Part shown: piece by piece, positions 14,453 to 58,499 of the stretch
Numbering within the stretch: the stretch's first letter is position 1
How the letters are laid out: the number at the start of each line of letters is the position of its first letter
Origin: Hemileia vastatrix
Lineage: Eukaryota; Basidiomycota; Pucciniomycetes; Pucciniales; Zaghouaniaceae
DNA: 64,000 bases
Assembly: GCA_030280995.1 (NCBI GenBank)
Contig: JASXTE010000016.1
Coordinates: 25,753,501-25,817,500, forward strand
Reading direction: 5' to 3'
Notes under the pieces: generated by a model
What the model was told of the DNA's origin: nothing
Seen by the model: only the letters and a program-made list of their open reading frames with translations
The model's database searches: none
Made by a program: the position numbers and the translations under genes

Positions 14453-14469
14453 AAATGCCTCCCCTCACT
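14453..14469 (-). other. Polypurine tract of gypsy C
   Basis: Minus strand CAGTGAGGGGAGGCATTT ends at the LTR start. Such a tract primes plus-strand synthesis of the reverse transcript. It supports reading the LTR at 13276-14452 as the 3' LTR of the element on its right. Confidence 0.6.
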
Positions 14470-32242: not shown

Positions 32243-33289
32243 ATTGATTAATGAATATTAAAAAAAAGTTTTTGATATCAAAAAATTATGATGTAATATG
32301 ATGAATAATTAAAAGAAACTCTATTCTAGAAAATTGAAGTTGATAATTTAATAGGATAAAAAATTGAATGAGATTAAAATTAAGGTGAGGATGAAAGAAA
32401 CAGAAAACATAAAGAGGGGGATTTTATATTATTTGAGCTTTTTTTAACATGTATTATTCATAGTGGGGTAAACTGAGTAACATGCTAAATCACAATCTGT
32501 TTATATTGTAGCGAAATTTGATGTAGCTAACAGAAAACACTAGTAATTCTTTGGGGACTTTTAGTGTGAAAAACAAATAATAACAAATGTATATCCCATA
32601 TGCAAATTGCCACAGGTAAATTCAAAATTTTTTAAATTAGAATTTACTCCTAAACAATGGAGATACACATAATTAGTATATTATATGAAAAAAAAAGGAC
32701 AATACTTTATGAATATTTGTTAAATTTACTTTCAGATGACAATGCAAGATTCACATATATACTGATATGCCTCATCAAACAAGAAATGAATTATAAATAT
32801 AAAATTGGTAACATTAGAATTTAAGATAAGAATTTGTTTTTTAAGTGAAAGGAGGAGTGTCAGGCTAGGGTGTGGGCACCGTGACCAAACCTTTGATATA
32901 CTTGGATACAACTAAGGGAAAAAAAAATTGAATAGTTTTATTTTGCAATATATCTTAGTCTGCACAAGATATTGCATTGTTGTCCCTAGCTATACCAATA
33001 TTGTTACTTTTCAAAAGTTATAGGACTACTAAGTTGATAAAATATTATTATGAATCACCCAATGAAATACCTTAAGCAACATTCAAAATTATTAAAATAT
33101 TAATATTCAATTTGAGATTTGGATTAGCTAATTTTTCACAACTTACCACAGTTTTGATTAATATAATAAAACTTGAAAAAAATTGTTGAGATAACCTAGA
33201 AATGGGTGCAAGAAAATGATGAAACATATGACTTGAAACTTAACTCATACACTATTGATAAACTTCATGGATCCTGATTAATTTCTATC
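32243..33289. other. Upstream region of gene C; LTR-like start at 32860
   Basis: No ORF. At 32848-32880 a purine run (AAAGGAGGAG) is followed by TGTCAGGCTAGGGTGTGG, the layout of a polypurine tract and LTR start in plus orientation; the first 14 bases resemble the gypsy C LTR start. No matching LTR end was found. Confidence 0.4.
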
Positions 33290-35225
33290 AAAATTAATTT
33301 TGAGACTAGCATATTGAATTTTAGCTATGACCAAGTACTGTAAGTGCCATGGTTTGTATTCAATATATTGGTGTTGAAATTAACTTTGATAGGAATCAAC
33401 AAATATCATATGGCACCATGCATGAAACACTGACAGAAACCATCAAATTTATGAGGCAATGAACCTCATAATTTCGATCGAAATTAATATAGACCCCTGC
33501 ATATTGAATACAAGCCATTTCACATGGACTACACAGACATAGATAAAATTCAACATGCATGGCTTAAAATTAATTTTGATCGAAATTAACCAAGGCATTA
33601 AAACATCAATTTTTATATGGTGTACTTGATCAAACCAGTTTACCTAACTGCTTAGCTTACCTATACTTATAGGAATTTCATGCATAGTCCATGTCCATAT
33701 TAATTTCGATCGAAATTAATGTTGACTAATACATAATGAAAACATGCTATGCCACTTACACTTGCCAGGCATAGCTACCATTAAATATGCCAGTATCAAA
33801 AATTAATTTCGATCGAAATTAATGAGAATGATAATCATGAATTTCTGGAGTCAACTGCTTATTTTTATGCATGGTGCCTTGCCAACATTAATTTCGATCA
33901 AAATTACTTTTGATACTGGCATATTGCATGTATATATGCCTGGAAAGTGTAAGTGGCATAGTGTGTATTCATTATGTATTGGTCAACATTAATTTCAATC
34001 AAATTTAATGTTGACATTTGCATATTGAACCCAAGCCAGAAAACAACCCAGAAGATTCTTCATAAAACTTCCCATTAATTTCGATTGAAATTAAGGCTGA
34101 CCATATACATATTGAATGGTAGTTATATCTGGTCTGAGTAAGCGGAGATTACTTATATTCAATATGTATTGGTCAAAATTAATTTTGATCAAAATTAATG
34201 AGCATTTTGATCATGAACTTTCTCAGTCAGTTAGTTGTTTCAATGCATAATGGCATGCCAACATTAATTTTGATCAAAATTAATGTTGAAATGATATAAT
34301 GCTTTTTTGCATGACATGTAAAGGATGGCAAGTATTTTTAAGTATTGAAATTTACTATACATGTTGAGGGTAAATATAAAATTTACATATCCATATTAAT
34401 TTCTATAAAAATTAATGTTGACCAATACATAATAAATAGTAAATATGCCTGGCTAGTGTAAGTGGCATAACTTTTTTTCAATCTGCACTTGGCAACATTA
34501 ATTTCGATCGAAATTAAGGTTCATGATTATCATAAATTTATTCAGTCAGTTGCTTACTGTTATGCATGGTAACATGTCAACATTAATTTTAATAAAAATT
34601 GAATTTGACATGCCACTAAGCATTTTTATGTAAGATGAAAAGTAGGGCACTCTATTCTTAAGTAAACACATTACAATGCATATTGAGCATGTAAATATCA
34701 TTTACACATTAATATTAATTTCAATCAAAATTAATGTTGACCATTAAACATTGAACACAAGCTTTACAACTTACATACACCAGATATAACTACCATTCAA
34801 TATGTATATGGTGCTCACTAATTTCGATTGAAATTAATGAGCAGTTTTATGAAGAATTTTTTGGGTTGTTTGCTGGTTTGGGTTCAATATGAAAATGTCA
34901 ATATTAAATTCTATTGAAATTAATGTTGACCAATACGTAATGAATACACACTATGCCACTTACACTTTCCAGGAATAGACACCATGCAATATGCCAATAT
35001 CAAAAGTAATTTCGATTGAAATTAATGTTGGCAAGGCACCATGCATAAAAATAAGCAGTTGACTCCAGAAATTCATGATTATCATGCTCATTAATTTTGA
35101 TCGAAATTAATTTTTGTTACTGGTATATTTAATGGTAGCAATTCCTGGCAAGTATAAGTGGCATAGCGTGTATTCACTATGTATTGGTCAACATTAAATT
35201 CGATTGAAATTAATATGGATACATA
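33290..35225. repeat. Palindrome array inside a large inverted repeat
   Basis: About 20 copies of TTAATTTCGATCGAAATTAA or close variants (for example at 33699-33720, 33802-33823 and 34498-34517; variants with TTTTGATCAAAA or TTTCGATTGAAA at 33569, 33885, 34074, 34176, 34261, 34711, 34817, 35007, 35090, 35189) recur every 80-110 bp. The DNA between copies is arranged as an inverted repeat: 33695-34175 reads as the reverse complement of about 34735-35221, with blocks such as GTTGACTCCAGAAATTCATG and its complement. The array has no coding potential and lies between gene C (5' end) and gene B (3' end). Confidence 0.9.
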
Positions 35226-35428
35226 AATGTGACATAAAGAGGTATGGACCATCAATTTGTTGAAAATACATTTTTATATCTCATACATTATTTGTTTTTC
35301 TTAAATAAAATGTTACTCTCTCTCAATATCACTTTATAACATTTACCAAGCTGCTTTGAAAAAAACAGAATACATAAAATTCAATATAAGATAGCTATAT
35401 TACACAGAAGATCACCATTATACCTAAG

Positions 35429-43240: not shown

Positions 43241-45079
43241 TTACATTGTTAGCTCCATTTTTTTCCTTTGAATCTTATACATGCTGAATTCTATACTTCC
43301 TTGTACAAAATAATTCAAAACATTTACTTGATTTTGCTGCCCCATTCTATACAGCCAATCAACAGCCTGTTGCTCAACTTCTGGATTCAAATTTGGCTCC
43401 TATTTCAACATTTAACATATAAAAAATTTAATATTTTTGTTCTTAATATGAAATAAAAGACATTGAGCTCACCATTATATATACATTTTGAGCACACCTG
43501 AGATCTATACCCACTCCTGCAGCCTGAATTGTTCCAACCAAAACTTGGCAATTTTTATTAAAATGGAATTCATGCATATTTTTGTCTCACTTTGTCCTGC
43601 TGAGTTCACCCGTAAGCTGGGTATACCTAATATTGTGGTAATCTAAAGCCATTTTTATTCTATTTTGAAATATTAGAAAATTGTTTTTAATAAGCCAACA
43701 CAATTTTGTAAAACAATTCATTATAGAATCACTTACATCTGCAAAAAGTCTGCAAAGTTGGAGAATATAACAGCTTTTGGAAAATTTATACCCCTTTCAC
43801 CAGAAAAAAAGTTTTTTAAGTGGCCTATAAGATGACAAATCTTTGCGGAATGCTGCCAGGTGAAATCAAAAGTTGGAGTTTCATCCAGATTTTCGTAGAT
43901 TGGATGGTTGCAGAATTTTCTTAAAATCATCAGCTCTCTTAGAAACTCAGATGAGTCCCAAGGGAAGTCAGTGCTTCTGGAGGGCCCATATTGCTCAGTG
44001 AATCCTTCTTGAAGCACATCAAGTTTAGACCTCCATGGATCTGCTAATTGAACCAATATCCCCCTTTGAATCTTTTTTGGAAGAGATAAAATTGCATCCT
44101 TTGTTCTACGTAGGCTTATGACTTTCATTAAGTGATTGATTGATTTAATAGAATTAGCCTTTCCTTTTTGCAAACCTGGAAAAAGGAAATTCTTCCATAA
44201 CCAGTCTTCTTGCCACTTTTCGATTCTAAGAAAAAATATGAGACTTTGAAGGTCAGTGGGCCTGTTCTGAAGTGGAGTTCCAGTCAAGCATAGTCGGTGT
44301 TGGGATTCCAAGTCAAATATTGTTTGAGCCCTCTGCCAGTAAGGATTTTTAATGTAACTAAAAGAATATTTATAAAAATTGATTATAAAAACTAAGTTTT
44401 AAGTTTTAGATATAGAAATGGGCACTAACTGAGCTTCATCTAAAACAACTCTATACCAAAAGAGCATTTGAGTCACCGGTATCTTTTTTTGGCTTTGATT
44501 TTTTGACATCATTGGGCCAGCTGTTTCATAGGTCATTAAAACAATAGCAGTGTCCTGTAGCTCATTGACATTAGTATTTTGAAAATCCTTCCCATAAAGA
44601 ACCTTGAAAGGAAGCACATTATCTTCAAAGTGCACACTTATTTCATTGATCCAATTTGATAGTGTTGCCAGGGGGCATATAATCAGTGTGGCTGAACTAC
44701 GATTAATACCTTCTTGATTTTCTGATACCTGGAATTGTCTTGCTTCACCTTGAGTTGCACTTATAAGAGAAAGAGTTGAAAGTGTCTTTCCCAAACACAT
44801 ATCATCAGCAAGTATTGACCCGTTTCCTTCAGGCGTTAATTGATTGTTAGGAAACTGATCTTTATAGTCATCGAATCCAGTTCTAAGCCAATGGTTGTCC
44901 TGGTGCCTCCACATGATACCCAACTTTTCCTTTAACATTCGTTCATTGTCAATCATAAAATTTATTGCTTGAAGTTGATGTGTTTTGAGAACTGTTTTGA
45001 TTCCTCGGATAAGTTGATCAGCTTTCCAATCTTGAGTACTCTGAGATATTTGGAAAGAGCCTTCAAAAATTACATGCGG
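43241..45079 (-). pseudogene. SNF2-family DNA-dependent ATPase, 3' part (split gene)
   Basis: Helicase motifs in order on the minus strand: HQLQAINFMIDNERM (Q-like motif), GSILADDMCLGKTLSTLSLI (Walker A; Cys where Gly is usual), CPLATLSNWINEI, WYRVVLDEAQ (Walker B, DEAQ variant), an intron (GT...; 44398-44312 region), LCLTGTPLQNRPTDLQSLIF (motif III), LRRTKD, AVIFSNFADFLQM, then after another intron ALDYHNIRYTQLTGELSRTK, VLVGTIQAAGVGIDL (motif V) and after a third intron YRMGQQNQV (motif VI). Sequence type is closest to the Rad5/Rad16/HLTF branch by my reading, without a RING finger seen. A TGA follows SRTK near 43610. The 5' end is cut at 45079 by a gypsy insertion; the rest is at 58055-58499. 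Confidence 0.8.
45076..45079. other. Target-site duplication, left copy (GCGG)
   Basis: GCGG just before the left LTR matches GCGG at 58055-58058 just after the right LTR. Removing the element and one copy restores an uninterrupted reading frame of the SNF2-type gene. Confidence 0.75.
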
Positions 45080-46216
45080 TGTGGTAGCCTAAAGTTTAGT
45101 ACGGCACCTAAGTACGTAAATGGAGTTATTACGGCGTGCAAGATTGGCGTTATTTTTTTTATTTTATTTTATTTTTTTTTTATATAAAAGGGTTTTATTT
45201 AATTTATTGGAGTTTTAAATATGAAGAAATTGGTCACGAGCAAATGCCTACACGAAAACAAATTATTTTACGGAGAAAACTTATTTTTACGGTCTGAAAA
45301 ATTTATAAGTATTAAGTCGAGTCACTCAAGAACCTTGGGAAATTTTCCCAGAATTTTTACTATTTTTCTTAAATTTTTAAATGAATTTTAAAGTTTTAAA
45401 GAAATATTTACGTTTTCAAAAATTACTTGACTTTGATGAATTTTCACGGGGTAATTAGAGCTGCGCAGACTACGAAAATTAGTTTGGTATGTAAAGGGGA
45501 AGTAGCTCTATTATGTGTAATTTTTCTAGATTTTTTATTATAGTTTTAAGGTTCTAAATTGAGTCCGGAAGTCCGGACGGACTCCGTTTCGACTCCGTAC
45601 GGACTCCGTACGGGCTCCGGATTGACTCTGGAAGAGCTCTGGAGGGGAAAACTTAGGCACGTGACTAGGAATACTTAAGCGCTTCTCAAACTCGAAATTG
45701 AGAGGGGGGACAGATCATACAGCTTAATCATTGACCACCACAGTCTCATTTTTTATTACTCAACAAATTAAAATAACTTGTAATACCCTTAAAACATTAT
45801 TATTTTTTTTTTACATAACATCTTAGAAATACAATTCAACAGTTTAAATAACACTTCATACAGGGTATCTTTAGAAAGGTCTTCGTCGCTGGGACTTGAT
45901 TATTGCTGTCTCATATAAATTTAAAATATTATAAAAACATAAAAGTCAATCTTTACAGATCTTTCACTGGTACACCTTAATTGTTGTCATCAGTATTTCT
46001 TTTATCAACAGCCACTTTCTTTAAATCTCAATAAGCGTTAAATATTTTAGAGTTTCATTATTTTTATCAATCAGATTCAAGTAGATTGGTTAGCTTAGTG
46101 ATTTAGAATTCCCATTTTGTTATTTTTATTGGAAGGACGGGGTTTTCAGCTAAATCCACATATCTCCTCCGGATTCTGCTTACAGCAAGGCGACTGTAAG
46201 AGTTTACCTTACCATA
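45080..46216 (+). repeat. 5' LTR of gypsy D
   Basis: Starts TGTGGTAGCCTAAAG and ends TTACCATA; the ends are imperfect inverted repeats (TGTGGTA/TACCATA). It contains a short run of ACTCCGTACGG-like repeats around 45585-45625. Nearly identical to 56900-58054. Confidence 0.9.
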
Positions 46217-46236
46217 GTTGGCGCCCAACGTGGGGT
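46217..46236 (+). other. Primer binding site of gypsy D
   Basis: TTGGCGCCCAACGTGGGG immediately follows the LTR. The start TGGCGCC would pair with a tRNA 3' end ...GGCGCCA. The tRNA was not identified. Confidence 0.75.
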
Positions 46237-46392
46237 TCGATTTCTCTAGCTTTCTTTAAAGACTTACTTGGATCAAGAACGTTATTAGCCTGCAAGAGGC
46301 TTATTTTCTGGAACTCTAATTGGATTTTTGTTATTGGCCTGCAAGAGGCTTGTTATTTTATCGATTGTTAACGCTTTTCATTACTTATTGGG

Positions 46393-49002
46393 ATGTCTTC
46401 TTCTGCTGTTGCTTCTGGATCTTCTAACCCTCTTACTCCCTCAGTTAGAATTGTTTCTTGGGATGGCCCAAAGTTTGATGGGGAGGAGGTTAAATGGTTC
46501 ATTAGCAGGTATGAAGCTGCTGCTGCTGTTGATGGTGCTTCTCATGTGGATATGGTGAAGCAAGTTAGATTTTTTATTGCTGATAGGGAGGTGGAAAAAG
46601 AGGTTATTGCTATGCAGGCATTCAAGGACAAGGATTGGGTTAAGCTTTCTAAAGCTATGGTTGATAGATGGGGTGTTAGGTTTACTATGATGGACCTCAA
46701 TAAAATTGTTGGAGACTGGCAAGCAAAAGGTGGTGTTTCTTCTATGGCTGACTTCAAAAAGCTCTGTGTTCAGTTTGATGAAGTGGTGGAATATCTCATA
46801 CTGGTGGACGAGTTAGTGCATGAGAACCAAGCAAAAGATTTGTTTTGGTCAGCATGCAGTAGGGATATTCGTATGGACGTCTTGAAGGATCTTTCAAGAA
46901 AAGATTTGATGAAGGAACTGCCTAATGGTGAGCAGAAACTGCCGGCTCTGGAGGTTATCAAAGAGAACATTCAGGCCCATCTCAAGTTATTGGCATTGGA
47001 CAAATATCAAGAGTCTTGCACTCAATATGTTAGCAAGGTTAGCAAAGTTTTGGCCGAAAATAACGATATTATGGTCAAAGCCCAGGAGGCCAAGAAGGCT
47101 CAAATGGGATTACCAGCTGCTAAAGTTGAGGGCAATGTAGATAATAAGATGGTCGATCATTTGGCCGATTTAACTAAACAATTAAAAATATTTGTTCAAG
47201 AAACCCAGAAGGCCAACAAGGCCTCAATCGCCTCTTCGTCGACGTCGACTTCTTATCAGTCCAGAGGTTATGAACGTCGAAATTATAATGGCAATAACAA
47301 CGGTAACCGCTTCCCAGGCAATGGGAGAAATGGTGGGAATGGTGGTAATGGATATAGAGGTGGCTATGATGAGCCAAAGGTGTGCTCCTATTGTAATAGG
47401 AGAGGGCACAGAGCAACAGTTTGTTTTGCTCTTGATAAGGATATGGATGCTGGGCGAGTTTTATTTGATGGTAAAGTTTATAAATTTCCTGATGGTTCGT
47501 TCATCAAGCCCAGTGATGGACAGTCTCCTTCTGATTTGGTCAGAAGAAGTTTAACGGCTGAAAGGAGAGCCAGATTTGAAGAGGTGACGGATGAAGATGT
47601 TAATGCCAAGAGTGGCAAAAATGGTAATGGTAATGGTGGTAAAGCTGACAAGGGCAAGGAGAAAGAGGTCAGTAAAGCCACATTTTCTACTTCTTTTGGT
47701 GGTTTAGAGCTGGCGACGGTTGCCCAGGTGGAGGGTAGCTGTATGGCTGGCGAATACGATGTTAATGCTGCTAGAAGAGCAGCTGCTACTAAGGCGAAAA
47801 GTAGCATTCAGAGCCAATTGAGGGCTAATCCTGGCAAGGCCAATAACAAAGTGAACCCTTACTCTAAGGACAAGAATTCTAGTGCTCAAACTGCCGCCAA
47901 CAAATTGAACCCTTACTCTAAGGACGAATTATATAAAATGCAGAAGGGGATTGCTGATATGGGGCCCCCTAGTTATGGAAAGTTTGATTTAAATGGTGAG
48001 CCTATGCCAGAGGATGATTCGGATTCTGAGGAGGACGTACCGTTGGCGTCTCTACCCAGACCAAGTTTTAGCGGTCCCATCCCAATGGAGGGTGTAAGAA
48101 GGACTAGTGATGGATCAGGATTAGTGCAAGAAGCTGGTGACGGAGTTAGGGTTATAGAAAGTGAAGATGTTATAATGGGGGGTGAAGATGGCTCGGTTGG
48201 ACCTCAAGAGGTACCCAGGGCCAAGGTTGTTAAATCAAAGGTCCAGTATGAGCGGCCAGTAGTTTCTGGTCAAGCTAATGCGATGGACGCAGTTTTGAAT
48301 AGGGTGAATCAACTTCAGATTCCCTTATCTTTGGGGGAGTTATTTACGATTAGTCCGGCGCTTGCTGAAAAGCAAAAGAAGCATTTGACGAGGCATCGGG
48401 TTTCCACTGGAGAGGTGGAATATATTTGTGAAAATGCTGAAAAGTTTGGGGAAGATGTAGATACACATTTTTCCGCTCCCCTGGGTTACCTGGTGGTAAC
48501 TCTTAACGGTAAAGAAGTAAAGGCCTTGGTCGATTCAGGGTCTCAAATTAATTTAATTTCATTGGAGCAAGCGACGAGTATAGGCTTGCCAATTAAAAGT
48601 GGAACTGGGGGAAACCTCAGAGGTATTGGAGGGCATGCAACAGAGCTGATGGGTACAGCTGAGCATGTCAGGTTAGGCATTGGTGGATCTGTTGGTAAGG
48701 TTCACTTTTATGTGGCCAGAGGAGCAGTCAAAACTGTTCTTGGTGGTCCTTTTTTGATGGATTTTGAGGCCAGGATAGGGTATCAAGCTGGCATGGGGAT
48801 TAGTTTGGAGATCACTGAAGAAGATATGCGGAGGTTACATATGCGGTTAGCGCCTCCTGGAGATGAAGGTTGGGAAACACGGCCAGGGATTACTACTCTG
48901 TGCCAGTGTTGTGTTTGCACCAAGAAGCGGCATATAAAACGGACGGCTTCTGGTGAATTATGTTTGTTAGAAAGGGATGGAAGCCCTCATTTTTTGGGGT
49001 AG
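46393..49002 (+). CDS. Gag-protease protein of gypsy D
   Basis: 869 residues. The N-terminal 200 residues form a helical capsid-like domain (VSWDGPKFDGEEVKWFISRY, DRWGVRFTMMDLNKI). Residues ~290-325 are a Gly/Asn/Arg-rich basic stretch, followed by a CCHC zinc knuckle at C331, C334, H339 and C344, which should bind genomic RNA. Residues 345-690 are a low-complexity linker. The retropepsin active site is ALVDSGSQINLIS (D714-S715-G716), with a second landmark VLGGPFLMDF downstream. The stop is TAG at 49000-49002. The pol ORF begins 43 bp earlier in the -1 frame. Gag and protease fused, with pol reached by frameshift, is a recognised retroelement layout. Confidence 0.92.
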   Translation: MSSSAVASGSSNPLTPSVRIVSWDGPKFDGEEVKWFISRYEAAAAVDGASHVDMVKQVRFFIADREVEKEVIAMQAFKDKDWVKLSKAMVDRWGVRFTMMDLNKIVGDWQAKGGVSSMADFKKLCVQFDEVVEYLILVDELVHENQAKDLFWSACSRDIRMDVLKDLSRKDLMKELPNGEQKLPALEVIKENIQAHLKLLALDKYQESCTQYVSKVSKVLAENNDIMVKAQEAKKAQMGLPAAKVEGNVDNKMVDHLADLTKQLKIFVQETQKANKASIASSSTSTSYQSRGYERRNYNGNNNGNRFPGNGRNGGNGGNGYRGGYDEPKVCSYCNRRGHRATVCFALDKDMDAGRVLFDGKVYKFPDGSFIKPSDGQSPSDLVRRSLTAERRARFEEVTDEDVNAKSGKNGNGNGGKADKGKEKEVSKATFSTSFGGLELATVAQVEGSCMAGEYDVNAARRAAATKAKSSIQSQLRANPGKANNKVNPYSKDKNSSAQTAANKLNPYSKDELYKMQKGIADMGPPSYGKFDLNGEPMPEDDSDSEEDVPLASLPRPSFSGPIPMEGVRRTSDGSGLVQEAGDGVRVIESEDVIMGGEDGSVGPQEVPRAKVVKSKVQYERPVVSGQANAMDAVLNRVNQLQIPLSLGELFTISPALAEKQKKHLTRHRVSTGEVEYICENAEKFGEDVDTHFSAPLGYLVVTLNGKEVKALVDSGSQINLISLEQATSIGLPIKSGTGGNLRGIGGHATELMGTAEHVRLGIGGSVGKVHFYVARGAVKTVLGGPFLMDFEARIGYQAGMGISLEITEEDMRRLHMRLAPPGDEGWETRPGITTLCQCCVCTKKRHIKRTASGELCLLERDGSPHFLG

Positions 49003-52000
49003 CAGGGGCTGATCACTCTAATGTTGTAATCTCTCCTCAGGATGAGATCCCGGATTGCAATAGGTCAGCTCACTTGGAGATAATTCAAGTGGATTCTCAA
49101 TTATTTTCTGTTAATATTACTTTGGAGTGCAAATACGTTTTGGACTTTTCTATATGTTTATTGGATTTACCCGGTTTTTCTATTAATTTTAAAAACGGTG
49201 AAAAAGGCAAAATGGGCCAAATTAGGTTGGATAAAAATTGGAAGGGTATGTTTTATAACCTCCAGCAAGAGGTTAAACTGAAATTAACTCCTTCTATCAC
49301 GGACCTCCAGCAAGAGGTTAAACTGCAATTATCTCCTTCTATTACGGACCTCCAGCAAGAGGTTAAACTGCAAAAATCTTATCAAAATACGATTAAAAAT
49401 CTTGGTATAATTAAAACACAAAAAAATAATTTATGTGAAAATGTTATTCAGGTTCTCCAGCAAGAGGGTAAACTGCGAAAATTTTATCAAAATCCGATAA
49501 AAAATCTCGGTATAATTAAAACACAAAAAAATAAATTTTGTGAAAATTCAATTCCGGTCCTCCAGCAAGAGGTTAAACTGCCGACTTTCTTTACGGGTGA
49601 TTTACTGTTGGATAAGGGAAGAAAAGGTGTAGGAAAATCTGTTTATAAATTAGACGAGGGAAAGGAGAAAAGGGTAAAATTTAAAAATGAAATAAAATAT
49701 TTTTCTAATTTTTCTTATTCTGATTCTGGCGATGAAGAAGATTCATTTGATGAAAGTTTTAATGGCGATACAAAAGTAAATGATTTACCTCAAGCTTATT
49801 TAGATGTGGACGCAGCCAAATATAAGAAAGTAGCAAATAAAGTTCGACCTATTAATGAACCGCTACCTGCTGAATTAAATCCACCTTTGAGAAGACCAAG
49901 GTTATCAAGAGATCCTTATGAAAGTCCCTTGGTAAAGAATCCGCCTGAATTTTCTGAGATGTCAAGAATCACTTTTGAGAGACTGGGTGTTGTTAATTTT
50001 GGACCTGATTGTTGGTTGTCTGGAGAAGAGAAGAAGTTGTTGTTGGATGTGATGGTCAAGCGAGAGAAGGCCATTGCTTTTGTAGAAGAGGAGAGGGGTG
50101 TGTTGAAGCATTCCTATGGGGAGCCTTACAAGATTCCTGTGGTATGTCATGAACCGTGGCAGCAGAAACCGATTCCTATTCCGGCTGCATTAAAAGAAGC
50201 CTATATTGAAGTTGTCAGAGAACGGATACGCACTGGACTGTATGAGCAATCAACGTCAAGTTATTCTAGTCCTGTATTTTGTATCAAGAAACCAAATGGC
50301 AAGCTTAGAGTTGTTCATGATCTTAGGGAATTAAATAGGGTTACAATAAAGGATGCTGGGATACCACCTAGTGCTGAGGAGTTTGTTGAAGCGTTTGCAG
50401 GGAGAGTGTGCTATGGTTTGGGAGATATTATGGGTGGATATGATGAGAGAGAGTTACATCCGGTCTCAAGGCCTCTCACTACATTCGATACGCCACTTGG
50501 ACGTTTACAGTTAACAAGATTACCTCAAGGAGCAACAAATTCGGTTGCAGTTTATCAAGCTCAGATGGCTTGGATCCTTCAAGATGAAATTCCACAATAT
50601 GCTGGAATCTTTATAGATGATGGAGGAATTAAGGGACCAACAACCGACTATGATAACCAGGTGTTGGAAGAGAATCCCGGGATACGCAAATTCATTTGGG
50701 AGTTTGCAATTACTTTAGAAAGAATCTTGTTTCGAATTGAAGAGGCTGGTTTAACTATTTCAGGTTCAAAATTTTCATGTTGTGTTCCAGCCTTAGAAAT
50801 ATTAGGCCATGTGGTATGTAGAGAGGGTAGGATTATGTCCAAGAAGAGAGTTAACAAAATTAAGTCCTGGCCGAGACCCAAGAATACGACCGAAGTTAGA
50901 GGGTTTTTAGGCGTTTGTGTATATGTTAGAATGTTTATCAAGGACTTTTCTTCATTGGCAGCTCCATTGAGATGGTTAACGAGAAAGGATGCAGACTGGG
51001 AGTGGGATGAAGAGTGTGAGAAGGAGGTTGTGGGGAAGGATTTAGTCCTGCACAAGTTGGATTATGGAAAAGATGCTGGCAGAATTTATTTAGCAGTTGA
51101 TTCAAGTCAGATTGCAGCTGGGGCGGTTTTGTCTCAGATGGATAAAGCTGGTTACATCAGGCCAGTTAGGTATGAATCTGTAGTATTTACTGAGGTCGAA
51201 TCAAGATATTCTCAACCAAAATTGGAATTATGTGGTGTGGCGAAAATACTGAAGAAACTTCAGCATATTTTGTGGGGGCAACATTTTGAGTTGCAAGTGG
51301 ATGCGAAATCGTTAATCCAGATGATTAATTCCCCAAGTTTACCGAATGCACCCATGATGAGATGGGTAGCTTTTATTCAACATTTTTCGTTTGATTTAGT
51401 TCATAAGCCTGGCAAAACTTTTACTATGCCAGATGGTTTATCAAGGAGACCACCCACTGAAGAAGATTCAGACTCAGAAGAGTTCGATGAAGATATACCT
51501 ATTATCAAAGCCAGCACTAAAGGAGCTGAAGACTTTCCATACCTCCCCCATGAGGTTAAACTGGCAGGACTATTGTGTTTAGATTATGATGATGATGACC
51601 TCCACCAAGAGGATAAACTGGAAAATAGTTTTTATGTTAATAAAGGTGTTGGAAAAGGTGTAGATAAATTCGGCAGAGAGGAGGTAGAAGAAAATGTGGT
51701 GTATGTAGAGGAAGATGGATTGGTAGTGTGGGATAGTAGTAAATTAAGGAATGGTGTATATGTTGGAGAATTAGAGAATTTAAATAAAAAGGTGGATAAA
51801 GAGAAAGAGGTATTTTCAAATACGGTTTTCGAAGGATCCAAAGGTTCAGAAGAAAAACGTCGACATAGCTCAATTAAAAATTTATTTAGGGGTCAACGAT
51901 TATTGGCTCATTCATGTGCAGGTGATATTGGTGATAGAGAAGTCCCTATTGATGTTATATTAATCGATTTTCAAGATGAAGTCTGGGGTCAGACTGGTTT

Positions 52001-53255
52001 TTATTTTTTGTTAGTCAAATATTTGTTGACTTTAGAGAGGCCAGAAGATTGTGAAGACGATGAATGGGTGGCTATCAAGAGGAAGTCATCTACGTTTTAC
52101 CTATCTGGTCGACGTTTAATGAGGAGGAGGTATCCAAATCCTCAAGTAGTTATAACTCAACAGAAGGGGCAAGAATTAGTTTTGAAATCACTGCATGAAG
52201 ATCTCGGGCATAGAGGCGTTGGAGAAACATTTAGAAGAATTTCTGATCGATTTTGGTGGCCTGGCATGAAGATGGCTGTTAAACAGTGGGTTCAGTCATG
52301 CGAAGAATGTCAAAGACGAAGTTATTTAAGGCCAAAAGAACCTGGACGCGCGACCGGTGAATATACGCTCTTTGGGAGAGTTAGTTTAGATGCCGTTCAT
52401 ATAAAAGAGGGACGGTATAAATATTTAATTGTGGCCAGAGATGATTTATCTGGTTGGGTAGAGGCAGCGCCTCTTATTAATTTAACTGCCAAAAATGTGG
52501 CAGAATTTTTTTTGAATAATTGGGTATATAGGTATGGGGTGATGAAGTTGGTAACGGTAGATGGAGGTCCTGAATTTGGGACAGAGTTTAAAGAGGCCGT
52601 ATTGAAAGTTGGATCAAAGGTTAGGGTAGCAACCCCATATTATCCTGAAGCTGAAGGCATGGTTGAAAGAGGGAATCAAGTTATTAAGGATGCTTTAGTT
52701 AAAATGTGTGGGACAAGTGCCGAAAAGTGGAGGCACTATTTACCTTTAGTTTTATTTGCTGATCGAATCACTGCCAAAAGGACGACCGGATTTTCACCTT
52801 ATGAACTTGTTTTTGGACAGAAAGCAGTTTTACCGGTTGATTTAGAAGCTGAATCATATCTTGGAGTTGACTGGGACACGGTCAAAACTACTGAAGAATT
52901 ATTGTGTGCAAGAATGATGCAGCTAGAAAAGAAAGAAGAATATTTAGAAAAGGCATATTCGCGGATGATGAAGATCCAAAATCAATCAGTTAGATATTGG
53001 GATGAGCGGTTGGCACATCGATTAAGGAAACCTTTGAACCCAGGAGATATGGTCCTGGTGTATAATAGGAGTTTGGAAAGTCAGTGGGGAAAAATGTTTG
53101 CAGATAGGTGGAATGGACCGTATAAAATCAAGGAGCAAGTTTCCGGCGGTTCATATGTGCTAGAAGAGTTGGATGGAGTAGTATTGAAGAAGAGGGTAGC
53201 GGCCGATCAAGTGAAACGGTTCTATCCTAGAGGCACCAGGAGTGCCGAAGTCTAA
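48960..53255 (+). CDS. Pol protein of gypsy D: reverse transcriptase, RNase H, integrase
   Basis: 1431 codons, in frame without a break. The first ~320 residues are a linker containing five LQQEVKL/LQQEGKL repeats. RT follows: SSPVFCIKKPNGKLRVVHDL, LGDIMGGYDERELH, LPQGATNSVAVYQ, and the catalytic FIDD at residues 551-554. RNase H includes IYLAVDSSQIAAGAVLSQM and ends in MPDGLSRRP. An acidic spacer with two more repeats (LPHEVKL, LHQEDKL) precedes integrase: HEDLGHRGVGETFRRISDRF and CEECQRRS (HHCC), then the catalytic triad D1144, D1201, E1236 (34 residues between the last two, as expected), and a C-terminal RWNGPYKIKEQVSGGSYVL module. The true N-terminus is probably made by frameshifting from gag, so the first ATG at 48960 is nominal. 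Confidence 0.92.
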   Translation: MFVRKGWKPSFFGVAGADHSNVVISPQDEIPDCNRSAHLEIIQVDSQLFSVNITLECKYVLDFSICLLDLPGFSINFKNGEKGKMGQIRLDKNWKGMFYNLQQEVKLKLTPSITDLQQEVKLQLSPSITDLQQEVKLQKSYQNTIKNLGIIKTQKNNLCENVIQVLQQEGKLRKFYQNPIKNLGIIKTQKNKFCENSIPVLQQEVKLPTFFTGDLLLDKGRKGVGKSVYKLDEGKEKRVKFKNEIKYFSNFSYSDSGDEEDSFDESFNGDTKVNDLPQAYLDVDAAKYKKVANKVRPINEPLPAELNPPLRRPRLSRDPYESPLVKNPPEFSEMSRITFERLGVVNFGPDCWLSGEEKKLLLDVMVKREKAIAFVEEERGVLKHSYGEPYKIPVVCHEPWQQKPIPIPAALKEAYIEVVRERIRTGLYEQSTSSYSSPVFCIKKPNGKLRVVHDLRELNRVTIKDAGIPPSAEEFVEAFAGRVCYGLGDIMGGYDERELHPVSRPLTTFDTPLGRLQLTRLPQGATNSVAVYQAQMAWILQDEIPQYAGIFIDDGGIKGPTTDYDNQVLEENPGIRKFIWEFAITLERILFRIEEAGLTISGSKFSCCVPALEILGHVVCREGRIMSKKRVNKIKSWPRPKNTTEVRGFLGVCVYVRMFIKDFSSLAAPLRWLTRKDADWEWDEECEKEVVGKDLVLHKLDYGKDAGRIYLAVDSSQIAAGAVLSQMDKAGYIRPVRYESVVFTEVESRYSQPKLELCGVAKILKKLQHILWGQHFELQVDAKSLIQMINSPSLPNAPMMRWVAFIQHFSFDLVHKPGKTFTMPDGLSRRPPTEEDSDSEEFDEDIPIIKASTKGAEDFPYLPHEVKLAGLLCLDYDDDDLHQEDKLENSFYVNKGVGKGVDKFGREEVEENVVYVEEDGLVVWDSSKLRNGVYVGELENLNKKVDKEKEVFSNTVFEGSKGSEEKRRHSSIKNLFRGQRLLAHSCAGDIGDREVPIDVILIDFQDEVWGQTGFYFLLVKYLLTLERPEDCEDDEWVAIKRKSSTFYLSGRRLMRRRYPNPQVVITQQKGQELVLKSLHEDLGHRGVGETFRRISDRFWWPGMKMAVKQWVQSCEECQRRSYLRPKEPGRATGEYTLFGRVSLDAVHIKEGRYKYLIVARDDLSGWVEAAPLINLTAKNVAEFFLNNWVYRYGVMKLVTVDGGPEFGTEFKEAVLKVGSKVRVATPYYPEAEGMVERGNQVIKDALVKMCGTSAEKWRHYLPLVLFADRITAKRTTGFSPYELVFGQKAVLPVDLEAESYLGVDWDTVKTTEELLCARMMQLEKKEEYLEKAYSRMMKIQNQSVRYWDERLAHRLRKPLNPGDMVLVYNRSLESQWGKMFADRWNGPYKIKEQVSGGSYVLEELDGVVLKKRVAADQVKRFYPRGTRSAEV
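48990..48996 (+). promoter_or_regulatory. Probable -1 ribosomal frameshift site (T TTT TTG)
   Basis: In the gag frame the codons read CAT TTT TTG GGG TAG. The heptamer T-TTT-TTG has the X-XXY-YYZ form and sits one codon before the gag stop; slipping back one base enters the pol frame at once (TTT GGG GTA GCA). The sequence between it and the repeats at 49259 could hold a downstream structure. Confidence 0.65.
49259..49580 (+). repeat. Five hairpin-TAAACTG repeats inside pol (CCTC/GAGG form)
   Basis: Copies at 49259-49280, 49304-49325, 49349-49370, 49454-49475 and 49559-49580 read CCTCCAGCAAGAGGTTAAAC plus TG (the fourth has GGGTAAAC). CCTC and GAGG can pair around a six-base loop. In pol they encode LQQEVKL, always in the same phase. 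Two further copies are at 51542-51563 and 51599-51620. A second longer repeat (IKNLGIIKTQKN) accompanies copies 4 and 5. Confidence 0.9.
51542..51620 (+). repeat. Two more hairpin-TAAACTG copies in pol
   Basis: CCTCCCCCATGAGGTTAAAC (51542) and CCTCCACCAAGAGGATAAAC (51599), each followed by TG. Same stem and downstream motif as the copies at 49259-49580, with a changed loop. Confidence 0.85.
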
Positions 53256-53567
53256 CTCCGAAATGAGGGTAAACTACAATTTTAATGACTTTTATTAAAT
53301 TTATGGATTCCTCCGCAATGAGGATAAACTATGATATCTACGAAATTTTATGGATTCCTCCGCAATGAGGATAAACTATTATATCAATGAAACTTTATGG
53401 ATTCCTCTGCAATGAGGATAAACTATGATATCTACGAAATTTTATGGATTCCTCCGCAATGAGGATAAACTATTATATCAATGAAACTTTATGGATTCCT
53501 CCGCAATGAGGATAAACTATGATATCTACAAAATTTTATGGATTCCTCCGCAACGAGGATAAACTAT
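53256..53567 (+). repeat. Seven hairpin-TAAACT copies after the pol stop, six as a 47-bp tandem array
   Basis: The first copy (53256-53276, CTCCGAAATGAGGGTAAACT) starts at the base after the pol stop codon. Six copies of CCTCCGCAATGAGGATAAAC plus T follow at 53310, 53357, 53404, 53451, 53498 and 53545, exactly 47 bp apart, with the spacer TATGGATT kept. All can form the CCTC/GAGG stem. A later copy in the GGTC-like form is at 53891-53913. Confidence 0.92.
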
Positions 53568-53569
53568 CA

Positions 53570-54368
53570 TCTTTTTTTATCAAAATACTTTACTATCGTT
53601 ACATTGTATATGGTCGACGAAACTATGATGGAACTTAACGAAATTCAAGAAGACCTTCTTTGAAATTTTCAAAAACTTAAAATTCTTTAAATATGGGTGA
53701 AGATAGTGTTGGAAAATTTTTAAAAATTTATTGGAAGAAGTGTTCACAGGGGAACCTTCTTAATTTAATATTGGCAAGTGTGGGGGTAATTGATGGGCTG
53801 GCTGCTCTATACACAATTACCCCATAATGTTCGTTTCCAAAATTTTCCCTGTTTCTAGTTGAATCCTGGCTTTGTCTTTTAATTATAGGAAGTCCACTAA
53901 GACTATAAACTGGAACGAATCAAGAGACACCGCTCTCAACGCCGGATTCAAGATTTTTTTTATTTTGTTTTTGATTTTTTATGTAAAATTGTGATTTCTT
54001 TTCTTTAATATATATTATGAATTATTGTAAAGGTGATGCTCACTGGTGGTCTCTAATCATTTTTATAAATTGGAGGGAGCCCACCCAGTGATCATCATTA
54101 TAAAAATTATCTTCTAAAAACTTTCATTTATTTTCTTTTCTTTTCAATTTCTTAAAATTGTGTAACCACATCAAGTTGCACTTGGATGTGGGTATGATGT
54201 CGAGGGTACGGCTCATCAAATGGCCGGGGGGCATCTTTTAAAATTTTATTTTAAATTTTTTTTTTTTTATTACTTTTTTTTATCTTTCTTTTCACATTCG
54301 TTTATCTTTCTTTAAAAATTAAATTTTAACTTTTATTTCAAAACTATCTTTTCTAAAATCTTTTATTT

Positions 54369-54410
<42 letters not shown>

Positions 54411-54452
54411 AAAAAATTAAAATTAAAATAAAAAAAAAATTAAAAAAAATAA

Positions 54453-54490
<38 letters not shown>

Positions 54491-54640
54491 AAAAAATAAT
54501 AAAAAAAAAAAAAAAAAAAAATAATAAAAAAATAAAAAAATAAAAAAAAAAAAAAAAATAATAAAAGGTATTTTAGTTTTAGGTAGTTTAGATGTTTATA
54601 TTTTATTTTTCAAACATTATTCAAGAAAGCTACATACCAG
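53570..54640. other. Non-coding 3' region of gypsy D with two long hairpins and poly-A-rich tract
   Basis: No ORF. A hairpin with ~20-bp arms pairs 54034-54053 with 54077-54097 (TGATGCTCACTGG...CCAGTGATCATCA, some mismatches) and another pairs CCACATCAAG (54166-54175) with CTTGGATGTGG (54181-54191). From 54376 to 54572 the plus strand is almost only A with occasional T. The GGTC-family repeat at 53891-53913 also lies here. Confidence 0.75.
54376..54572. repeat. A-rich low-complexity tract
   Basis: About 197 bp of A runs (the first 33 A long) broken by single or double T. On the minus strand it is a long T tract just downstream of the antisense gene's stop (54652), where transcription termination or 3' processing signals might lie. 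Confidence 0.9.
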
Positions 54641-54651
54641 GAAGAGCACCA

Positions 54652-55665
54652 TCAAGGGTTGTTATCTTTTGAAGAATCGAAATTAGAAAATTTAGAAGGA
54701 CCTTGATCGATTTCCTGGGATTCGAATCTTATTTCACGGTCACGATAGTGTTGAAGCCAGTTGGCTATTTTGAAAAGGTCTCTTAACAGTTGCTCTCTCA
54801 TCCAAGATTCTGATCTATCAAAGGGCGGGTATCGTTGGAAATAAGCGATAAGGTTATTAAAATTGGCAAAAAGCTTTTCAGACACTAGGTGAATGGGAAC
54901 TCTAGGAAAGCTTGGATTAGGTTCTGGTAGTTCATAAGCAGAATATGAAATTGGAGAACCGGTGGACGCTTATCAAATTAAAATATCAGCAAATTAAAAC
55001 CTGAAGATTAAGAAAATAAAAAGAGACAACTAACCTGTGTCAACACTATCATGATCATAGATAAATGGCTTACTTGGTAATGGAGTGGGATTTTTTATGT
55101 TTAGAAAAGGATTTTTTATTTTTGATAGATGAGGAGGACTGGTGTTGGATTTGGTGTTTGAAGTAGATGTTCTGGGCCTTTTGGATGATACAAGAGAAGA
55201 TGAAGACTGCTGGCTATTATAGGACCTTTTGTGCTTTAAGATGTTGGAAGAAGGAGAAGAATTGTTAGAAGGTTGAAGCATGGCCCTGGGAGCAGCAATA
55301 GTTCTTGGGGGAGTAGCAGCAAGTCTAGATTGGAGAGAAGGACCCAGAGGATTAGGTGATGGAGAAAGGTTTAAATAGGCTGATGGAGAAAAAGGTATGG
55401 GATCTTTAGAGGTTGATGGAATAGGGGGTGGAGTAGAAGGTGAAGAAGAAGGAGGAGGATTGCAGAAGGCGGCGAAGCTAGTAGCAGTGATGGGGAAAGA
55501 ACCACAGTTCAAGCCAGAACATTTTCTTTTCTTCTCATAGCAGGATAAACAGGCCCTGTTATAAGTGTGCTTTTGCCAGTTAAAAGAGAAGATACATTCC
55601 CTATGGGTGAAGGCACAGTATTTGCAAGATTGATCAGCTGAAGCAATGAAGTCAGAAGGTTTCAT
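54652..55665 (-). CDS. Antisense two-exon gene in gypsy D: Cys6 zinc-cluster-like protein
   Basis: Minus strand, between pol and the 3' LTR. Exon 1 is 55665-55035, intron 55034-54969 (GTTAGT...AAG), exon 2 54968-54652; phases agree, giving about 315 residues. The N-terminus has C14-x2-C17-x6-C24-x14-C39-x2-C42-x6-C49, with ACLSCYEKKRKCSG in the second half. This spacing and the basic residues resemble fungal Zn2Cys6 DNA-binding domains, though the linker is longer than usual and the classical basic signature is in the second half. The middle is Ser/Pro-rich; a basic patch LVSSKRPRTS could be a nuclear signal. The C-terminal exon is helical (LIAYFQRYPPFDRSESWMRE). A regulatory DNA-binding role is inference. 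Its upstream side faces the GGTC dyad cluster. Confidence 0.7.
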
Positions 55666-55759
55666 CTTGTTAGGAGATATTTTTTTGAAGAAGAAAACTT
55701 GAAACTAGGATGAAGAAAGCTGGTGGCAAAATCTGGGTTCAAGGATAGAGAAGTTGTTA

Positions 55760-56228
55760 GGTCCACCAAGACCTTAAACTGGACTATTATCAAGCTGTTG
55801 GGTCCACCATGACCTTAAACTGGATTTCTTATTGATTAAATGTTTGGTCCACCATGACTTTAAACTGGTAGTTCATTCATTGTTTAGTCCACTATGACTT
55901 TAAACTGGAAAATTAATATCTGCAGGATAATTCAACATTCATTGGACCACTATGGCCTTATACTGGATTACTTGTCGATCAAATGTTTGGTCCACTATGA
56001 CATTAAACTGGATTATCAAATTTATTCAATCTTTGGTCAAGCCTAGGCCTTACTTAGGAATTTATCAAGTTATTTATGCACCTAAACGATCTTTGGTCCA
56101 CCAAGACCATAAACTGGCAATCGATTATATGTTTGGTCCACCAAGACTTCAAACTGGAATGTCAATCTTGTTTGGATAACTCAATTCAATCTTTTAATTT
56201 ATCACTGTCCACTAAGACTTTAAACTGG
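55760..56228 (+). repeat. Ten hairpin-TTAAACTGG copies, GGTC/GACC form
   Basis: Copies at 55760, 55801, 55846, 55886, 55944 (weak), 55989, 56035 (weak), 56095, 56135 and 56206, each about 23 bp: GGTCCACCAAGACCTTAAAC plus TGG or a close variant. GGTC pairs with GACC around a six-base loop, the same geometry as the CCTC/GAGG copies, and the tail TTAAACTGG is shared. Spacing is irregular (38-60 bp). The cluster starts 95 bp upstream of the antisense gene's ATG. Confidence 0.9.
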
Positions 56229-56899
56229 TTATTCAATTATTTCTGGAATTGGGTGCTGATAAGCTTTAAGAGGTTAAAATTTTAGGTGGTAATGATGCTA
56301 AGGAAAGCATAATGGTTAATTAGGTGAAATTTGTGGCGCTTTAACATGGTCTAAAGTTGAAATTATTATTGGAAGCCTGGCAAAAGTATTTTATGGGTTT
56401 GCTGTATAGCAAAGTTTGAAAATTGTGATGAAGGAATCAGAAGTTAGGATGGTAGTTGGATTTTAGGAAATGATTTTTTTTAGTGCCTCACAGTTAGGCC
56501 ATTTTTTTTGGTGTGAAGCATGGAGGACCTTATGGCGAGATTGGAATCATAGAATTCGGCTCAGTGGGGGGCCCTATGAGGTTGGAATCAGGAGTATTCG
56601 GCTCATAGGAAGATCCACTCTCTCAATGCTGTGACAAGAAGGAAGACTGGTATATGGGAGTCTGAAGGGATTCAAACCTTGCTCTCAGTAGTGGAATCAT
56701 CACAAGATTTATATTATTTTATTTTATGTTATATCAGGCCAGAGAAGAAAGAAAACATCATTTATGTTGAAAGTTTAATAAGACCAAGCAAAAACAAAAT
56801 TTTATCAAGTTATACTGTTAGAAAAGATAATTTCTTTGAAATTGTTCAACCACTTATGCAAAGTTTTAAGAATGGGGACATTCTCGATTGGAGGGAGGA
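56229..56899 (+). other. Region before the PPT; small plus-strand ORF and imperfect tandem repeat
   Basis: 56524-56608 has a ~45-bp imperfect duplication around GAGATTGGAATCATAGAATT and GAGGTTGGAATCAGGAGTAT, each followed by CGGCTCA. A 93-codon frame (56631-56912, MTRRKTGIWESEGIQTLLSV) runs into the LTR. Its composition looks protein-like but no family is recognised; it could be the last exon of a spliced transcript or chance. Confidence 0.4.
56888..56899 (+). other. Polypurine tract of gypsy D
   Basis: TTGGAGGGAGGA directly precedes the right LTR. Confidence 0.75.
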
Positions 56900-58054
56900 T
56901 GTGGTAGCCTAAAGTTTAGTACGGCACCTAAGTACGTAAATGGAGTTATTACGGCGTGCAAGATTGGTGTTATTTTTTTATTTTTTATTTTTTTTTATAT
57001 ATAAAAGGGTTTTATTTAATTTATTGGAGTTTTAAATATGAAGAAATTGGTCATGAGCAAATGCCTACACGAAAACAATTTATTTTACGGAGAAAACTTA
57101 TTTTTACGGTCTGAAAAATTTATAAGTATTAAGTCGAGTCACTCAAGAACCTTGGGAAATTTTCCCAGAATTTTTACTATTTTTCTTAAATTTTTAAATG
57201 AATTTTAAAGTTTTAAAGAAATATTTACGTTTTCAAAAATTACTTGACTTTGATGAATTTTCACGGGGTAATTAGAGCTGCGCAGACTACGAAAATTAGT
57301 TTGGTATGTAAAGGGGAAGTAGCTCTATTATGTGTAATTTTCTAGATTTTTTATTATACTTTTAAGGTTCTAAATTGAGTCGGAAGTCCGGACGGACTCC
57401 GTTTCGACTCCGTACGGACTCCGCTTTGACTCCGTACGGACTCCGTACGGGCTCCGGATTGACTCTGGAAGAGCTCTGGAGGGGAAAACTTAGGCACGTG
57501 ACTAGGAATACTTAAGCGCTTCTCAAACTCGAAATTGAGAGGGGGGACAGATCATACAGCTTAATCATTGACCACCACAGTCTCATTTTTTATTACTCAA
57601 CAAATTAAAATAACTTGTAATACCCTTATAACATTATTATTTTTTTTTTTACATAACATCTTAGAAATACAATTCAACAGTTTAAATAACACTTCATACA
57701 GGGTATCTTTAGAAAGGTCTTTGTCGCTGGGACTTGATTATTGCTGTCTCATATAAATTTAAAATATTATAAAAACATAAAAGTCAATCTTTACAGATCT
57801 TTCACTGGTACACCTTAATTGTTGTCATCAGTATTTCTTTTATCAACAGCCACTTTCTTTAAATCTCAATAAGCGTTAAATATTTTAGAGTTTCATTATT
57901 TTTATCAATCAGATTTAAGTAGATTGGTTAGCTTAGTGATTTAGAATTCCCATTTTGTTATTTTTATTGGAAGGACGGGGTTTTCAGCTAAATCCACATA
58001 TCTCCTCCGGATTCTGCTTACAGCAAGGCGACTGTAAGAGTTTACCTTACCATA
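56900..58054 (+). repeat. 3' LTR of gypsy D
   Basis: Same ends as the left LTR (TGTGGTAGCC...TTACCATA). Differences include one extra ~22-bp unit of the ACTCCGTACGG repeat near 57420, changes in T-run length near 56970, and about ten base changes. Confidence 0.9.
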
Positions 58055-58499
58055 GCGGGATATTAAAAAAGATAGTGGAGTTGTAGTTCAGGATTGGCCA
58101 TAAATCGATTTGAGCAGAAGAAAATGCTTCTTTAGCAAGACTGATTAGTGTACTTGAAGAAAAGAGGCATCCCCAAAGTTGATACTGATTACCAAAAACT
58201 GGAACTAAGTAAGCATGAAAATAGAAAGGCTTCATAGGATTCAAGGCACTTCTTTGGTTTAAATGGTGAGATCCAGAGCCAATGTCACCCAATAGTGGTC
58301 CAATGTGCTGACTCTGCACTTGAGAAAGATTACCGACAAGGGTTGGTTTTCTTTCTTCAAATAGTCCAAAAATATGAACATTCAAATGGCCTCGCTGTAA
58401 AATTGTGGGGGTCGGTGAGTTTTGAAATCTTGAAATTACATTCATATAAATTTGATTGATTGTTATTGAGAACTGTCCAACACATCTGAGACTTGACAT
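58055..58499 (-). pseudogene. SNF2-family ATPase, 5' part (split gene)
   Basis: Reads MSSLRCVGQFSITINQIYMN from 58499 and is open to the LTR at 58054, ending in NYNSTIFFNIP. The reading frame continues across the insertion into the piece at 45079 (HVIFEGSFQISQS...HQLQAINF). The ~147 residues have no obvious domain, as is common for N-terminal regions of such ATPases. An in-frame start farther upstream was not seen. The gene is interrupted by gypsy D, and its 3' half also carries a TGA, so it may have been dead before the insertion. Confidence 0.75.

What the first reader, a model, noticed from the sequence alone, without database searches (positions are those of the whole stretch)
49259..56238. 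About 25 copies of a covarying mini-hairpin plus TAAACT(G) spread over one retrotransposon
Every copy is a 4-bp stem, six-base loop, second stem arm, then (T/A)TAAACT. In pol and just after it the stem is CCTC/GAGG (14 copies), in 53891 and 55760-56228 it is GGTC/GACC (11 copies). Both arms change together, so pairing or dyad symmetry is conserved, not the sequence itself. The copies cross the boundary from coding to non-coding DNA, which argues against a purely protein-level repeat. I know of no described retroelement motif of this kind. It could be an RNA structure (packaging, translation, export) or a protein-binding dyad.
Basis: seen in the sequence. Interest (0 to 1): 0.88.

Follow-up and report, generated by a model that had tools for sequence, protein, structure and literature searches.

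The report
Repeated mini-hairpin in rust retrotransposons
A virus-like jumping gene of a rust fungus carries about two dozen copies of one tiny fold-back motif that distant cousins also keep, probably as a repeated handle on the element's RNA rather than as part of its proteins.

Summary
The repeat is real. A Ty3/gypsy-type LTR element (45080-58054) holds 23 clear copies plus one decayed copy of a 22-base hairpin-and-tail motif, all on the sense strand. One stem class has 12,569 exact matches in the 747.6-Mb assembly, none for the reversed pattern; all 30 matches examined lie in related LTR elements. A diverged family B keeps the motif at matching places, coding and non-coding. So does one element without pol, which otherwise matches the window element only in a gag piece, 3'-UTR hairpins and the LTR edge. 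Covariation is real but narrow: pair 2 swaps C-G/G-C, pair 1 varies with mismatches, inner pairs stay fixed, and no compensated change was seen within single places. Leucine codon choice shows nucleotide-level constraint. Best reading: a many-copy cis-acting RNA hairpin, most likely a Gag-binding packaging signal (inferred). A DNA-binding array or an RNA export/processing element is not excluded. Genome-wide counts of broken stems could not be made: the search tool stayed busy.

The parts
45080..46216 (+). 5' LTR (1,137 bp); no motif copy; GCGG target duplication at 45076-45079 and 58055-58058
   Evidence: self-BLAST 96.8% with 3' LTR; sequence
46219..46235 (+). primer-binding-like site
   Evidence: sequence directly after the LTR; near-identical in L037, L003, L050 and, with changes, L051
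46372..49002 (+). gag-protease ORF; CCHC-like knuckle by eye; no motif copy
   Evidence: protease matches; no zinc-knuckle family reported at E<=1
48957..53255 (+). pol ORF (RT, RNase H, integrase) with seven in-frame motif copies
49259..49580 (+). five in-frame copies, protease-RT spacer: 49259, 49304, 49349, 49454, 49559
51542..51620 (+). two in-frame copies, RNase H-integrase spacer: 51542, 51599
53255..53566 (+). seven copies starting in the pol stop codon: 53255, 53310, 53357, 53404, 53451, 53498, 53545 (47-bp units)
53780..53823 (+). hairpin H1 (GGGGTAATTG / CAATTACCCC)
   Evidence: 25 matches in 22 of 22 elements; 1 of 14 pairs compensated in 10 distinct sequences
53891..53912 (+). single copy AGTC/GACT after a splice-acceptor-like TAG|G
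54041..54090 (+). hairpin H2
   Evidence: 22 of 22 elements
54166..54238 (+). double hairpin H3-H4
   Evidence: H3 in 22 of 22 elements; 4 of 20 pairs with double changes
54652..55704 (-). antisense gene that stands in place of the AGTC array in the window, L034 and L044 (3 of 19 family-A elements)
55760..56227 (+). GTC-class copies: 55760, 55801, 55846, 55886, 55944 (decayed), 55989, 56095, 56135, 56206
56900..58054 (+). 3' LTR (1,155 bp); no motif copy

Best explanation
The repeat is a cis-acting RNA element of a rust Ty3/gypsy lineage: a short hairpin (3-4 stem pairs, hexaloop C-N-N-N-A-N) with a conserved 3' tail (NTAAACTG). It is present 17-34 times per 10-kb stretch of a family-A element, on the sense strand, in the window from the protease-RT spacer to the 3' UTR. 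Shown here: conservation at nucleotide level in coding and non-coding sequence, in two pol-bearing families and one pol-less element, and arm complementarity between copy classes. Inferred: it acts as RNA; the copies are equivalent protein-binding sites; the likeliest partner is the element's own Gag, so that the copies work together as dispersed packaging/assembly signals that also let pol-less derivatives be packaged. Copy number changes by tandem duplication of units that include their linkers.
For: 23 copies on the sense strand, 0 antisense; one strand only in 20 of 20 loci. 47 distinct copies: 93.1% of cells paired, covariation score 0.478 against shuffled mean 0.149 and at most 0.270 for slid registers. 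Pair 2 Watson-Crick in 480 of 486 copies; G.U-type mismatches 14, A.C-type 4 over 89 distinct copies, a lean to the sense RNA. CTC, GAG, AAA, CTG in 7 of 7 in-frame copies although CTC is 3.3% and CTG 5.8% of 120 other Leu codons in pol. Family B, about 54-79% identical in long pol pieces, has copies at matching places. L051, without pol, has 17 copies at a looser threshold and otherwise shares with the window element only a gag 5' piece, 3'-UTR hairpin blocks and the polypurine/LTR edge at E below 1e-3. Neighbouring hairpins H1 and H3-H4 show compensatory changes.
Against: Copies are related by duplication, so covariation may rest on a handful of events. Pair 1 shows no excess pairing inside the C-G class of pair 2 (32 seen, 32.0 expected of 44). 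No compensated double change was seen within the 14 places tested, while fixed mismatches exist (55989, 56206); three places (55944, 56135, 56206) vary as much as or more than their flanks. Hairpin pairing is not favoured by context (mean probability 0.48, 0.57 with shuffled flanks, 0.33 for the antisense strand). Uniform orientation is weak evidence, since the DNA-bound VANC21 motifs are also arrayed in one orientation (PMC5735166, passages). Only one pol-less element was read. Gag binding and packaging were not tested; Pfam reported no zinc-knuckle family for Gag at E<=1.
Confidence: 0.4

Rival explanations
1. DNA-level binding array: a host or element-encoded protein recognises the motif on duplex DNA to oppose silencing, open chromatin or insulate the element, as VANC does on VANDAL transposons or Su(Hw) on gypsy.
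For: Same-orientation arrays that grow by tandem duplication, with stem types that differ between arrays, resemble VANC21 targets (PMC5735166, passages). The gypsy insulator has 12 sites separated by variable AT-rich sequence (PMC2374998, passages). A dyad would also keep both arms.
Against: Loop and tail are asymmetric, so this is not a simple homodimer dyad. Copies lie in coding sequence and are absent from LTRs, 5' UTR and gag of the window element. They stand among other structured RNA blocks. The antisense gene, the one in-element binder candidate seen, is in 3 of 19 family-A elements.
Confidence: 0.25
2. RNA export, splicing or stability element: the hairpins and H1-H4 together let unspliced genomic RNA leave the nucleus or control use of the splice-like site before 53891.
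For: In 9 of 9 aligned H1 modules a YAG|G lies directly before a mini-hairpin. Copies follow stop codons (window 53255, L050, L051). LTR elements need export of unspliced RNA (PMC10309623, abstract start in the listing).
Against: Copies inside pol are far from the splice-like site; no RNA-seq was available, so splicing is not shown.
Confidence: 0.2
3. No function for the element: a selfish mini-palindrome or plain tandem duplication that spreads and is merely tolerated.
For: Arrays are tandem units of 45, 47 and 105 bp and copy number varies (17-34 per family-A 10-kb stretch). The last three places decay.
Against: Seven single-copy places vary less in the motif than in flanks (0.005-0.014 against 0.029-0.065 differences per site). 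The motif is kept between diverged families where the flanks are not.
Confidence: 0.1
4. Protein-level motif (LxQExKL-like peptide), for example a polyprotein cleavage site.
For: In-frame copies sit in the two spacers where Pol would be cut, in the same frame. A similar peptide is in the protease-RT spacer of P0007 (2) and P0014 (1).
Against: 17 of 24 window copies are non-coding; synonymous sites are fixed. Apart from P0007 and P0014, none of 163 related proteins has the peptide.
Confidence: 0.04

Closest known systems
Dispersed packaging signals of single-stranded RNA viruses, MS2 type (review PMC6281560, passages read)
   Same: Many stem-loops with a shared recognition motif spread over coding and non-coding genomic RNA
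   Different: Here the copies are nearly identical, partly in tandem arrays, with a conserved tail, in an LTR retrotransposon; capsid binding untested
VANC-bound motif arrays of Arabidopsis VANDAL transposons (PMC5735166, passages read)
   Same: Short motif, one orientation, tandem-repeat growth, subtypes that differ between arrays
   Different: VANC motifs are mainly non-coding and in DNA transposons with a known binder; here an LTR element, coding copies too, arm complementarity, no binder known
Su(Hw) site array (gypsy insulator) of Drosophila gypsy (PMC2374998, passages read)
   Same: About a dozen copies of one site in an LTR element, separated by variable AT-rich sequence
   Different: Gypsy sites lie in the 5' UTR and have another consensus; here pol and 3' UTR
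Retroviral constitutive transport elements (recalled; only listings seen)
   Same: Structured RNA in the 3' UTR, as H1-H4 here
   Different: As recalled, one or few large hairpins rather than many mini-hairpins; no sequence comparison made

Membership tests
Ty3/gypsy LTR retrotransposon | LTRs, gag, then protease-RT-RNase H-integrase order | tested here: met
Dispersed RNA packaging signals | multiple dispersed RNA sites with a shared motif in the genomic RNA | tested here: met
   sequence level only:
Dispersed RNA packaging signals | sites fold as stem-loops in the RNA | tested here: inconclusive
   complementarity kept between classes, but predicted pairing in context is moderate
Dispersed RNA packaging signals | bound by capsid protein; loss impairs assembly | not testable with these tools
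   no binding or packaging data
VANC-type anti-silencing targets | same-orientation tandem arrays of a short motif | tested here: met
VANC-type anti-silencing targets | element-encoded binding protein | tested here: inconclusive
   antisense gene in 3 of 19 elements; only a sub-threshold Zn-cluster match, E 0.58; a trans-acting binder is not excluded
VANC-type anti-silencing targets | motif mainly in non-coding sequence | tested here: inconclusive
   17 of 24 window copies non-coding, 7 of 24 in pol
gypsy insulator (Su(Hw) array) | array in the 5' UTR | tested here: not met
   no copy from 45080 to 49258
Rfam RNA family | match above gathering score within 45000-58100 | tested here: not met
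   run with an E-value threshold: one match only, snoR639, 21.9 bits against a gathering score of 42

The most novel reading that the evidence does not exclude
A rust LTR-retrotransposon lineage carries an explicit, near-identical, two-dozen-copy RNA packaging/assembly code that runs through pol and the 3' UTR, is shared by autonomous elements and pol-less parasites, diversifies in stem class by compensatory change, and leaves a peptide-level trace in a Puccinia coronata element.
Probability: 0.3. Interest if true: 0.8.

Novelty: new variant of a known kind. Interest (0 to 1): 0.6.

Why it matters
My literature searches listed no description of such repeated hairpins in LTR elements. If they are packaging signals, the question whether many dispersed RNA contacts drive assembly becomes readable from sequence, with thousands of natural copies in one genome and a pol-less element as natural evidence for cis function. 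If they are DNA sites, they would be a VANC-like system in an LTR element outside plants.

Tried and rejected
Tail-to-LTR pairing: CAGTTTA, complementary to the tail, is in both window LTRs but was not found outside pol in L049-L051, so it was dropped. Hairpin favoured by local context: not supported. Antisense gene as the in-element binder: only 3 of 19 elements. Rfam: one sub-threshold match. DNA of relatives: none in viral contigs or genome contigs. Peptide trace: 3 of 3 strict regex hits among 163 proteins fall in P0007 and P0014, but shuffles of all 163 give a mean of 1.26 and a maximum of 5, so only the location speaks. One search used a mis-registered structure and is void; one search replaces it. 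Genome-wide counts of kept and broken stems could not be made, as the genome search stayed busy. No random sample of the genome was obtained: confinement of the motif to these elements rests on 30 of 12,569 matches, all on contig C2 and from about a dozen elements.

Full report
What the window holds. The window is G000:C531:25753501-25817500 of a 747.6-Mb assembly in 791 contigs. The finding lies in one LTR element, 45080-58054, with LTRs of 1,137 and 1,155 bp (96.8% identical), a GCGG target duplication, a primer-binding-like site at 46219, a gag-protease ORF 46372-49002 with a CCHC-like knuckle seen by eye, and a pol ORF 48957-53255 with RT, RNase H and integrase.

The observation. A scan blind to the two outer stem pairs finds 23 copies on the element's sense strand, 0 on its antisense strand and 1 elsewhere in the window; a decayed copy at 55944 makes 24. 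One stem class (CCTCCNNAANGAGGNTAAACT) has 6,178 forward and 6,391 reverse exact matches in the assembly and none for the pattern read backwards. I examined 30 of these 12,569 matches, all on contig C2 and from about a dozen elements; all 30 lie in elements related to the window's, with at least 65% of each 3-kb locus aligned.

Families. Of 20 ten-kb loci, 18 are the window's family A (long pol pieces about 88-98% identical) and two, L049 and L050, are a family B (about 54-79% in long pieces). Copies lie on one strand only in 20 of 20 loci. An extra AGTC/GACT array is present in 16 of 18 family-A loci; in L034, L044 and the window an antisense gene stands there instead. B has copies at matching places: in frame between protease and RT, between RNase H and integrase, across the pol stop codon (L050; a weaker match in L049), and after a splice-acceptor-like site in the 3' UTR. 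L051, a 5-kb locus, has a gag-like ORF, no pol match and 17 copies at a looser threshold of 10 of 12 core bases. Against the window element it matches at E below 1e-3 only in a gag 5' piece (46444-46618), stretches containing mini-hairpins, three 3'-UTR blocks (about 53733-53914, 54040-54093, 54160-54253) and the polypurine/LTR edge (56868-56905). That is what one expects of cis-acting sequence; only one such element was read.

Is it a stem? On 47 hand-chosen distinct copies from the three families, 93.1% of cells pair and the covariation score is 0.478; no shuffle of 500 reaches it (mean 0.149), and slid registers reach at most 0.270. Two of the five measures do not exceed the shuffles: pairs with a change on both sides (2 against 2.0) and further pair types (6 against 5.5). 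Pair 2 is G-C 26, C-G 20, other 1; pair 1 is A-U 18, C-G 14, G-C 4, G-U 2, U-G 2, other 7; pairs 3 and 4 do not covary. Over all 486 copies in the window and 20 loci, pair 2 is Watson-Crick in 480. Limits: copies are related, so there may be only a handful of events. Inside the C-G class of pair 2, pair 1 shows no excess pairing (32 seen, 32.0 expected of 44); inside the G-C class it does (36 against 26.9 of 56, 0.0015 of permutations, whose looser scan takes in a few chance matches). In the 14 places compared across family A (one variant row at 56135 not displayed) no compensated double change was seen; one-arm changes were, for example C to T at position 1 of the 49559 place in 6 of 18 elements. 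G.U-type mismatches number 14 and A.C-type 4 over 89 distinct copies, a lean to the sense RNA. Predicted pairing in context is moderate (0.48) and lower than with shuffled flanks (0.57).

Is it constrained as nucleotides? The seven in-frame copies use CTC, GAG, AAA and CTG in 7 of 7 cases; elsewhere in pol CTC is 3.3% and CTG 5.8% of 120 Leu codons. Across 18-19 family-A elements, seven single-copy places vary less in the motif than in the flanks (0.005-0.014 against 0.029-0.065 differences per site). Against this, 55944 varies as much as its flanks, and 56135 and 56206 more, so the last copies decay; 49559 differs little (0.036 against 0.046), and for 53310, 55760 and 55801 the flanks are misaligned by array length.

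Neighbouring RNA structures. H1 matches 25 times in 22 of 22 elements searched, with 1 of 14 pairs compensated in 10 distinct sequences. H2 and H3 are in 22 of 22. In H3-H4, 4 of 20 pairs show double changes among 11 sequences. In 9 of 9 aligned H1 modules a YAG|G precedes a mini-hairpin. The region therefore looks like structured RNA.

Beyond this genome. In 163 related proteins, L-x-[NQHD]-E-x-K-L occurs three times, all in the protease-RT spacers of P0007 (unnamed metagenome protein) and P0014 (Puccinia coronata f. sp. avenae). Shuffles give a mean of 1.26 and a maximum of 5 over all proteins, so the place, not the count, is the evidence. No DNA of these relatives was reachable.

Mechanism. 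I commit to a repeated cis-acting RNA hairpin with a tail, bound by a protein; Gag is the likeliest partner and packaging/assembly the likeliest job (0.4). Shown: nucleotide-level conservation, sense orientation, complementarity between classes, retention in a pol-less element. Inferred: RNA rather than DNA, the partner, and packaging. A DNA-binding array (0.25) and an export/processing element (0.2) stay open.

Literature. Searches on rust LTR elements, dispersed packaging signals in retrotransposons, palindromes in LTR elements and Pucciniales hairpins listed nothing that by title or abstract start describes this motif; only listings were seen. Passages were read of PMC5735166, PMC6281560 and PMC2374998.

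Noticed in passing
window 53780-54238; L049, L050, L051: Four structured 3'-UTR blocks (H1, H2, H3-H4) shared by families A, B and the pol-less element, with compensatory changes in H1 and H3-H4; H1 modules may sit in a short intron. No Rfam match above threshold.
   Followed up: partly
L051 1-5000 (G000:C2:4122400-4127399): LTR element with a gag-like ORF and no pol match but with 17 motif copies. L003 joins a related gag-like ORF to a family-A pol, which suggests recombination between the two RNA types.
   Followed up: partly
window 54652-55704, - strand: Antisense ORFs, one cysteine-rich, in place of the AGTC array in 3 of 19 family-A elements; possibly a captured gene.
   Followed up: partly
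window 48990-49002: T TTT TTG run just before the gag stop with pol in the -1 frame: a likely -1 frameshift site (read and the ORFs).
   Followed up: no
window 46287-46302 and 46336-46351: Two copies of another small hairpin (AGCCTGCAAGAGGCTT and GGCCTGCAAGAGGCTT) in the 5' UTR; the same core twice in L037 and in L003, not seen in the printed L050 and L051 5' UTR stretches.
   Followed up: no
P0007 residues 739-832; P0014 around 800 and 1000: Other in-frame peptide repeats in the protease-RT spacer of related rust-type elements; whether they hide hairpins is unknown, as no DNA was reachable.
   Followed up: no
window 33270-35230; 8293-10324 with 14454-16508: A cluster of nested direct and inverted repeats, and a 2-kb direct repeat pair at 76% identity.
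   Followed up: no
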